Positions 17,140 to 19,434 of a DNA stretch of 33,733 nucleotides are shown in pieces (positions within the stretch are counted from its first letter, which is position 1; each line of letters begins with the position of its first letter). The position numbers and the translations under genes were made by a program. Under the pieces are notes generated by a model that did no database searches, had not been told where the DNA came from, and was given only the letters and a program-made list of their open reading frames with translations. Origin of the DNA: Candidatus Tanganyikabacteria bacterium (GTDB lineage: Bacteria; Cyanobacteriota; Sericytochromatia; S15B-MN24; VGJW01); assembly GCA_016867235.1 (NCBI GenBank), contig VGJY01000029.1, forward strand, positions 1 to 33,733, in the 5' to 3' direction.

Positions 17140-18549
17140 TCAGCGGCGGCGCCGGCGCGGGCGCTGGGGGGGCGCCGCGGAAACCGATTCCTCGGGACTC
17201 GCCTCGGCGAGCGGATGGCTGGCCAGCAACGCCGCCACCAGGGTGACCGGGTCGCCGATGTGCAGCAGGTGCCGGGCCATCGGGAGGAAGTCGTCGAGGC
17301 GGTGACCGGCATAGTCGATGAAATCGTGGGGATCGGGCCCGCGCCGCCTGGGGTGCGCGGGCGCCGGCGCCGGAGCCCGCTCCTCCGGCACGCGCCCGGC
17401 CGAGCGCGGCTCCGCGGGCGGGGCCGCCGACCGCGGCCTGACCGGCGCGGCGGAGGCCGCGACCAGCTTCTCGATGCGGGCGTACTGGCGCTCGTCCTTG
17501 GGCGTGACCAGGGTGATGGCGATGCCGGAGCGACCGGCGCGCCCGGTGCGGCCGCTACGATGCACGTAAATCTCCGGGTTGCTGGGCACCGAGTAGTTGA
17601 TGACGTGGCTGACATTGGCGATGTCGAGGCCGCGAGCGGCTACCTCGGTAGCGACCATGATCTGCACGTCGCCGCGCTTGAATGCTTCGAGCGCGTCGAA
17701 GCGCTCGGTCTGGGACATGTCGCCGTGCAGGCAGCCGCTCTTGAAGCCGGCCGAGCGCAACCGCCTGGCGAGCCACGGCGTCTCGGTCTTGGTCTGGCAG
17801 AAGATGAGGGCCGAATCGGGCTTCTCGGCCTTGAGCACGTCCACGAGCGTCTCGAAGCGATGCTCGTGGGTGGTGCGGACGGCGCGATGCGAGATGGTGG
17901 TGGGCGTGGCTTCCTCGGGCTGCGCCTGGATCTTGCGTGCGTCGCGCATGTAGGTCTTGGCGATGCGGATGATCTCGCGGGGGAAGGTGGCCGAGAACAG
18001 CAGCGTCTGCTGGCGGCCGCCACCCGCATCCAGGATGAATTCGAGATCCTTCTTGAAACCCATGTCGAGCATCTCGTCGGCTTCGTCCAGGACCACCGCG
18101 CGGACGGTGTCGAGGCGCAGGTGCCCGCGCTCCAGCAGATCGCGCAGCCGCCCCGGTGTGCCCACCAGGAAGGTGGACCATTGCGCGGCGGTGATGTGCT
18201 CCTTGATCGGGACGCCGCCGAAGACCGCCTCGATGAGCACCCCCAGGTGGCGCCCCACCCGGGCGATTTCGCTGGCGACCTGCAGCGCGAGCTCTCGCGT
18301 CGGCGTGATGACGAGGCACTGGGTACCCACGCGCTGCAAATCCAGCCGATTGAGGAGGCCCAGGCCGAACGCGAGCGTCTTGCCGGATCCGGTCTTGGCC
18401 TGCACCAGGAGATCGTGGCCGGCAATGACCTCGGGGATGGCCAGAGCCTGCACCGGCGTGGGCTGCGAATAGCCCATGTCGGCGAGGCCTTCGAGCAACT
18501 CGTACTTCAGGTGGAACGACTTGAATTCGGGACGCTTGTCATGACCCAT
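17140..18549 (-). CDS. DEAD-box ATP-dependent RNA helicase
   Basis: A two-RecA-domain helicase of 469 aa that unwinds RNA duplexes with ATP, usually in ribosome assembly or RNA decay. Motifs in order: F...GYSQPTPVQ (Q motif, Gln34), AKTGSGKT (motif I, 51-58), PTREL (83-87), TPGR (131-134), DEAD (155-158), SAT, ALIFCQTK, ATEVAARGLDI and HRSGRTGRAGRSG. The C-terminal 100 residues are Pro/Ala/Arg-rich with a short helical block, HDFIDYAGHRLDDFL, and end in five Arg, which suits RNA binding. ATG 18549 is chosen because the family starts close to its F-x-x-F/L helix; in-frame ATGs further upstream (up to 18591) would overlap the divergent selenoprotein gene. The two divergent starts are only 25 bp apart. 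Confidence 0.93.
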   Translation of the reverse strand: MGHDKRPEFKSFHLKYELLEGLADMGYSQPTPVQALAIPEVIAGHDLLVQAKTGSGKTLAFGLGLLNRLDLQRVGTQCLVITPTRELALQVASEIARVGRHLGVLIEAVFGGVPIKEHITAAQWSTFLVGTPGRLRDLLERGHLRLDTVRAVVLDEADEMLDMGFKKDLEFILDAGGGRQQTLLFSATFPREIIRIAKTYMRDARKIQAQPEEATPTTISHRAVRTTHEHRFETLVDVLKAEKPDSALIFCQTKTETPWLARRLRSAGFKSGCLHGDMSQTERFDALEAFKRGDVQIMVATEVAARGLDIANVSHVINYSVPSNPEIYVHRSGRTGRAGRSGIAITLVTPKDERQYARIEKLVAASAAPVRPRSAAPPAEPRSAGRVPEERAPAPAPAHPRRRGPDPHDFIDYAGHRLDDFLPMARHLLHIGDPVTLVAALLASHPLAEASPEESVSAAPPQRPRRRRR

Positions 18550-18574: not shown

Positions 18575-18781
18575 ATGACCATCGAGATCACCTACTGCGT
18601 CCAGTGAAACTACCTCCCCCACGCCGCCGGTCTGGCGGCTGATCTCAAGGCGAAGACCGGCCACGAGGCCAGGCTCATCGAGGGGTCGCGCGGCATCTTC
18701 GACGTAAGGATCGACGGGAAGCTCGTGTTCTCCAAGTACGAATCCGGGCGCTTCCCCACGCTGAAGGACATCGTCCAGTGA
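18575..18781 (+). CDS. SelW/Rdx-family selenoprotein with in-frame UGA (Sec11)
   Basis: Read with the TGA at 18605-18607 as selenocysteine, the frame gives 68 residues that match the Rdx family (SelW, SelT, SelH relatives): MTIEITYC-V-Q-Sec-NYLPHAAGLAADL, then LIEGSRGIFDVRIDGKLVFSK and ESGRFPTLKDIV. The active-site CxxU (Cys8, Sec11) follows the first strand, as in the thioredoxin-like fold. Homology continues on both sides of the UGA, so it is not a real stop; Cys homologs have CxxC here. A SECIS-like hairpin lies directly downstream. The role in this family is thiol redox chemistry in the cytosol, with partners poorly known. It ends in a GTGA overlap with the next lipoprotein gene. The ATG has no clear ribosome site. 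Simple gene calling would miss it, because the frame appears to stop after ten codons. Confidence 0.9.
18608..18640 (+). promoter_or_regulatory. bacterial SECIS-like element of the selenoprotein gene
   Basis: Perfect arms GCCGCC (18623-18628) and GGCGGC (18634-18639) enclose the loop GGTCT. The hairpin starts 15 nt after the UGA. Bacterial SECIS elements lie within the coding region just after the UGA and present G and GU in a small apical loop to SelB; the Escherichia coli fdhF loop is the same GGUCU. The distance from the UGA to the loop Gs (about 22 nt) is inside the usual range. Confidence 0.8.
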
Positions 18782-19434
18782 AAGTTCGGCCCCTGGCCTT
18801 TGCCGTCCCCACCGTCCTGCTGGCGGGCTGTCCGGGGTTCTTCCCGTTCACGACCCTCCCGGGCGCCATGTCTCGACCGCCGGATGGGACGATGGTCGCG
18901 CCCGCGCCAGCCATGCCTGGTTTGATCGCCCAGTATGGGCCCGTGGCCGGCCGCTGGCGCATCAAGCTGTTCGACCGCGGCCGGACCCGGGAATTCTCCT
19001 TCGACGCCGAGACGGCCGGACGCCACGTGTCCGGCAGGCTCGCCCCCCTCAACGAAGATTCGCCCCCCAAGTGGACGGTGGACGGGCTGCTCAGCGAGAC
19101 CGCCGCGTCGACGCTATCGCTGTCGATCGGGTCGACGACGTCGGCGGAGCCGGCGACCACGAGCATCACGGTCGTCGCCCACCTGCGCTACGGGGAGTAC
19201 GGCTTCGCCTCGCCGGCACCGGCCGCCACGCCCACTCCCACGCCGTATCCCACGCCCGTGGCCAACTCCGGCTCCGTGCCGACACCCGGTCCCTACTACG
19301 ATCGCCCGCCCGAGAAGGTGCCTTACGGCCCGCCGGGAGCGGGTTTCGGCAGCTACACGTTGCTGGGGACATGGGAGGAAGGCCAGGCCAGCGGATCCGC
19401 CACCGCCATACGGGTTGTTCGCGTAGGTTCCTAG
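18778..19434 (+). CDS. lipoprotein of unknown function, translationally coupled to the selenoprotein gene
   Basis: The GTG start overlaps the selenoprotein stop (GTGA). The 218-aa product has a signal peptide with lipobox L-L-A-G-C (Cys18). Residues about 45-135 form a beta-rich domain (GRWRIKLFDRGRTREFSFDAE, then RHVSGRL and a strand-rich segment) that could be a small barrel such as a lipocalin-like fold. A Pro/Thr-rich, Gly/Tyr-containing linker (about 142-185, with TPTPTPYPTP) precedes a last strand pair, SYTLLGTWEEGQASGSATA. No family was recognised. With no ribosome site of its own, its translation probably depends on ribosomes passing the UGA. Confidence 0.75.
   Translation: MKVRPLAFAVPTVLLAGCPGFFPFTTLPGAMSRPPDGTMVAPAPAMPGLIAQYGPVAGRWRIKLFDRGRTREFSFDAETAGRHVSGRLAPLNEDSPPKWTVDGLLSETAASTLSLSIGSTTSAEPATTSITVVAHLRYGEYGFASPAPAATPTPTPYPTPVANSGSVPTPGPYYDRPPEKVPYGPPGAGFGSYTLLGTWEEGQASGSATAIRVVRVGS

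What the first reader, a model, noticed from the sequence alone, without database searches (positions are those of the whole stretch)
18575..18781. UGA-encoded selenocysteine in a SelW/Rdx-type protein
Seen: the frame from ATG 18575 continues through TGA 18605-18607 for 57 more sense codons to TGA 18779-18781. Protein similarity runs on both sides (YCVQ-Sec-NY before; SRGIFDVRIDGKLVFSK and GRFPTLKDIV after). Known: Rdx proteins (SelW, SelT, SelH) have CxxU or CxxC at exactly this place. The stop is therefore very probably recoded, and ordinary annotation would discard the gene or start it after the UGA.
Basis: partly seen in the sequence, partly recalled or inferred. Interest (0 to 1): 0.85.

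Follow-up and report, generated by a model that had tools for sequence, protein, structure and literature searches.

The report
SelW-like selenoprotein with recoded UGA
A small bacterial redox protein gene whose internal "stop" codon is almost certainly read as selenocysteine; the prediction is well supported, but it is an ordinary new member of the long-known SelW-like selenoprotein family.

Summary
ATG 18575, in-frame TGA 18605-18607, 57 further sense codons, terminator TGA 18779-18781. The read-through product matches Pfam Rdx (E 1.3e-18) over residues 2-68, across the TGA, with CxxU in place of CxxC. The window's own genome has tRNA-Sec (UCA anticodon), selA (split over two contig ends), selB and selD, and that selD has an internal UGA itself. 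The UGA is kept in all four Rdx genes found in other genomes of the order and in 53 of 55 well-aligned relatives from many phyla; the two Cys forms are archaeal. A bacterial SECIS hairpin lies at 18623-18639: 6 bp, loop GGUCU, 21 nt after the UGA. It is supported by covariation and by strong synonymous-codon bias (274 of 312 stem pairs against 219±6 expected from the amino-acid sequences). Within the class, the gene occurs only in genomes with selA (5 of 7 against 0 of 11). It is not novel: bacterial SelW-like (Rdx, CxxU) selenoproteins have been catalogued since at least 2005, and UGA read-through was confirmed in Campylobacter jejuni by Ribo-seq and proteomics. Expression of this gene was not tested.

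The parts
18575..18781 (+). SelW-like (Rdx family) selenoprotein gene, 68 residues with Sec at residue 11 (motif CVQU)
   Evidence: Pfam PF10262 E 1.3e-18; TIGR02174; only Rdx match in the genome
18605..18607 (+). in-frame UGA read as selenocysteine
   Evidence: Conserved as TGA in 4 of 4 order relatives with the gene and 53 of 55 well-aligned relatives
18623..18639 (+). bacterial SECIS hairpin: stem GCCGCC/GGCGGC, loop GGUCU at 18629-18633, with 21 nt between UGA and loop
   Evidence: Forms in the minimum-energy structure of 18605-18645; covariation; synonymous-codon test z 9.7 over 52 genes
18779..18781 (+). terminating UGA of the same gene, which overlaps the possible GTG start (18778) of the next reading frame
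17140..18549 (-). divergent DEAD-box RNA helicase gene (neighbour; the start at ATG 18549 is my choice)
   Evidence: Pfam DEAD E 1e-44, Helicase_C E 1e-32
18778..19434 (+). downstream reading frame for a small proline-rich protein with a lipoprotein-like start; no Pfam match

Best explanation
This is a gene for a small SelW-like (Rdx family, thioredoxin-like) selenoprotein. During translation SelB bound to Sec-tRNA-Sec recognises the SECIS hairpin just downstream of UGA 18605 and inserts selenocysteine as residue 11; translation then runs to the ordinary UGA at 18779. The CxxU pair is inferred to do thiol/selenol redox chemistry, but its substrate is unknown. Shown here: the family, the conserved UGA, the conserved SECIS hairpin and the complete Sec machinery. 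Inferred: actual insertion in this organism, and the redox role.
For: Family match across the UGA. tRNA-Sec in the own genome at 67.5 bits, cut-off 47, confirmed by ARAGORN with a TCA anticodon. selB 334.8 bits (over the cut-off), selA 485.9 bits and continued on the contig that begins just before selB, selD 392.3 bits with its own in-frame TGA in TRTAG-U-ASK. UGA conserved in order relatives and 53 of 55 relatives. SECIS: 92.6% of cells paired against 73.5% in shuffles, 29 double changes against 6.2, 0 of 500 shuffles reach either; 274 of 312 stem pairs against 218.9±5.7 under synonymous recoding, none of 5000 as high; the loop Gly codon is GGT in 15 of 15 against 44 of 319 elsewhere, and the loop Ser codon AGT in 22 of 24 against 11 of 193. 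The two archaeal Cys forms lack the hairpin (0 of 6 pairs). Co-occurrence with selA in the class: 5 of 7 against 0 of 11, Fisher P 0.0025.
Against: No expression or mass-spectrometry data for this organism. Folding energy of this one hairpin is not exceptional in every stretch tried (z from -2.4 to -0.5), and in a slightly longer fragment a competing hairpin wins. Sequences are related, so the pooled figures overstate independence. selA is split by an assembly gap.
Confidence: 0.97

Rival explanations
1. A pseudogene: a Cys codon (TGT/TGC) mutated to TGA and the gene is decaying.
For: A single base change would give TGA from TGC or TGT; the genome is a fragmented draft.
Against: The TGA is at the same residue in four other genomes of the order and 53 of 55 relatives; the rest of the frame is intact; there is a conserved hairpin after the TGA and complete Sec machinery.
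Confidence: 0.01
2. UGA is reassigned generally in this organism (for example to Trp), or the gene starts after the UGA as a truncated protein.
For: None found beyond the open frame itself.
Against: UGA also terminates this same gene and Sec machinery is present. A start after the UGA would remove the first strand and the CxxU redox motif that the family keeps.
Confidence: 0.01
3. UGA is read through with Cys or another near-cognate amino acid rather than Sec, at least when selenium is scarce.
For: Cannot be excluded from sequence; Sec decoding depends on selenium supply (general knowledge).
Against: Conserved SECIS and cognate machinery point to Sec as the selected residue.
Confidence: 0.01

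Closest known systems
Bacterial SelW-like selenoproteins (Pfam PF10262 Rdx, CxxU)
   Same: Same family, CxxU motif at the same place, bacterial SECIS right after the UGA. The most abundant selenoprotein family of the Sargasso Sea survey (48 genes, PMC1088965), listed in bacterial genomes such as Geobacter sulfurreducens (PMC1794560), and as SELENOW-like, pfam10262, CxxU in a 2022 review (PMC9312934).
   Different: Only the host lineage; no structural or mechanistic difference found.
Campylobacter jejuni SelW (CJnc60); NCBIfam NF041051 SelTWH_Campy
   Same: Small SelW with UGA read by tRNA-Sec; full-length translation seen by Ribo-seq and proteomics (PMC11955535). Our protein scores 81.3 bits against NF041051.
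   Different: Falls short of that model's equivalog cut-off of 88 bits, so it is not a member by that model; neighbouring genes were not compared.
Rdx proteins of solved structure (2fa8, 2oka, 2p0g, 3dex; C17orf37 2ljk)
   Same: Detectable sequence similarity over residues 3-68.
   Different: The two shown aligned (2ljk, 2fa8) have CxxC, not CxxU; overall similarity is weak.

Membership tests
Rdx family / SelW-like selenoprotein | Match to PF10262 above the curated cut-off | tested here: met
   67.4 bits, cut-off 22.6; TIGR02174 58 bits, cut-off 34.2
Rdx family / SelW-like selenoprotein | CxxC or CxxU after the first strand | tested here: met
   YCVQU at residues 7-11, aligned in 53 CxxU and 2 CxxC relatives
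Bacterial selenoprotein gene | SECIS hairpin immediately downstream of UGA with a G in a small apical loop | tested here: met
   Hairpin 18623-18639, loop GGUCU; covariation; synonymous-codon bias. Criterion from PMC1088965
Bacterial selenoprotein gene | tRNA-Sec, SelA, SelB, SelD in the genome | tested here: met
NF041051 SelTWH_Campy equivalog | Score at or above 88 bits | tested here: not met
   81.3 bits
Bacterial selenoprotein gene | Sec in the purified protein | not testable with these tools
   Needs mass spectrometry
Rdx family / SelW-like selenoprotein | Thioredoxin-like fold and redox activity | not tested
   No fold prediction was run; sequence similarity to solved Rdx structures only

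The most novel reading that the evidence does not exclude
The terminating UGA (18779) overlaps the GTG start (18778) of the next frame, so translation of the downstream small protein might depend on Sec read-through upstream, making it selenium-responsive.
Probability: 0.07. Interest if true: 0.4.

Novelty: new member of a known kind. Interest (0 to 1): 0.18.

Why it matters
It confirms a gene that UGA-blind annotation would miss or truncate, and documents a genome with an apparently complete selenocysteine system. It does not change what is known about SelW-like selenoproteins.

Tried and rejected
Rfam scan of the window gave no match, and no tRNA lies in the window; tRNA-Sec is elsewhere in the genome. 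Weak tRNA-Sec matches occur in all 14 control genomes, so only the match well over the cut-off was used. Per-sequence synonymous-codon tests of the hairpin are individually not significant, including for the window (P 0.28); only the pooled test is decisive. Ten of the 66 loci are chance matches to an unrelated secreted protein through the KAKTGHEA stretch (it resembles the molybdate-binding protein ModA, from memory), and one (L088) is a fragment of an archaeal copy; all 11 were excluded. My first pattern for the Sec in SelD was too narrow and was redone.

Full report
Observation. The reported frame is exactly as described: ATG 18575, TGA 18605-18607 at residue 11, 57 more sense codons, and the terminator TGA 18779-18781. 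Translated through the TGA it gives a 68-residue protein that matches Pfam Rdx (PF10262) from residue 2 to 68 with E 1.3e-18, and NCBIfam TIGR02174 'SelT/SelW/SelH family' above its cut-off. It is the only Rdx gene found in the genome. Relatives with solved structures align over residues 3-68.

Machinery. The window lies in a 6.1 Mb draft genome of 514 contigs, rated 100% complete. It has one tRNA-Sec above the Rfam cut-off (67.5 bits), which ARAGORN also calls tRNA-SeC with anticodon TCA. It has selB (704-residue frame, 334.8 bits) and selD (392.3 bits). selA is found in two pieces: model positions 1-355 on contig 221 and 388-453 at the first bases of contig 429, just before selB. This looks like a selA-selB operon broken by an assembly gap (inference). 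The selD gene has an in-frame TGA in TRTAG-U-ASK, so it is probably a second selenoprotein gene in the same genome.

Conservation. Of ten genomes in the order (the own genome included), five have an Rdx gene and all five have the TGA. A search of the species collection gave 55 well-aligned relatives: 53 have TGA at this codon, across Acidobacteria, Proteobacteria, Planctomycetes, Chloroflexi, Gemmatimonadetes, Actinobacteria and others, and two archaeal ones have TGC. In the class, the five genomes with the gene are all among the seven with a full-score selA, and none of the eleven without it has the gene (Fisher P 0.0025). The same seven have a tRNA-Sec match of 67 bits or more; in the others the best match stays at or below 50 bits.

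SECIS. The RNA 18605-18645 folds into GCCGCC-GGUCU-GGCGGC, with 21 nt between the UGA and the loop. The same hairpin is in the relatives, with the loop mostly xGUxU (AGUUU, GGUCU, AGUCU, CGUGU). On 25 sequences the seven-pair helix is 92.6% paired with five pairs showing double changes; sliding the partners by one to three columns drops pairing to 55% or less. Because this stretch also codes for a conserved peptide (roughly A-A-G/S-L-A-A), I tested it against synonymous recoding: 274 of 312 stem pairs are formed against 218.9±5.7 expected, none of 5000 trials reaching it. The loop codon is GGT in 15 of 15 glycines and AGT in 22 of 24 serines, although these are minority codons elsewhere in the same genes. 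The archaeal Cys forms do not have the hairpin. Relatedness inflates these figures somewhat, but not to the point of doubt.

Mechanism. From established knowledge of bacterial Sec insertion (summarised in PMC1794560 and PMC9312934): SelA converts Ser-tRNA-Sec to Sec-tRNA-Sec with selenophosphate from SelD; SelB carries it to the ribosome and binds the SECIS hairpin. The CxxU motif suggests redox function, as stated for the family in PMC1088965; the physiological substrate is unknown.

Known or new. SelW-like selenoproteins were the most abundant selenoprotein family in the Sargasso Sea survey (PMC1088965), are listed for several bacterial genomes (PMC1794560), and appear as pfam10262, CxxU in a 2022 review (PMC9312934). 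Read-through of such a UGA was confirmed by Ribo-seq and proteomics in Campylobacter jejuni (PMC11955535). PMC1794560 also notes that SelW-like proteins have few or no Cys homologs in Sec-containing organisms, in line with what is seen here. The finding is therefore correct and well supported, but an ordinary new member of a known family.

Surroundings. A divergent DEAD-box helicase lies upstream. In the relative L025 a frame that looks like the antisense of a similar helicase lies on the same side, and a ferredoxin and a PP2C-like phosphatase frame follow the Rdx gene; the window has a PP2C domain further downstream too. The helicase and PP2C readings in L025 rest on inspection only.

Noticed in passing
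G000 contig 198, 3769-4695 (locus L019): selD of the same genome has an in-frame TGA at what looks like its catalytic position (TRTAG-U-ASK), so it is probably a selenoprotein too.
   Followed up: partly
18778-18781: The terminator of the selenoprotein gene overlaps the GTG start of the next frame (GTGA), which could couple their translation; the ferredoxin after the Rdx gene in relative L025 does not overlap it.
   Followed up: partly
18778-19434: Downstream frame for a 218-residue proline-rich protein with a lipoprotein-like start and no Pfam match.
   Followed up: no
L057:2025-2072, L070:1639-1686, L083:2031-2078 (Actinobacteria and Gaiellasilicea): Rdx selenoprotein genes with one extra codon between the UGA and the hairpin, so the UGA-to-loop distance is 3 nt longer.
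   Followed up: no
L044, L049 (Entotheonella), around 2031-2075: SelW-like genes with UGA whose hairpin does not form in the common register (1 of 6 pairs), perhaps a shorter or shifted SECIS stem.
   Followed up: no
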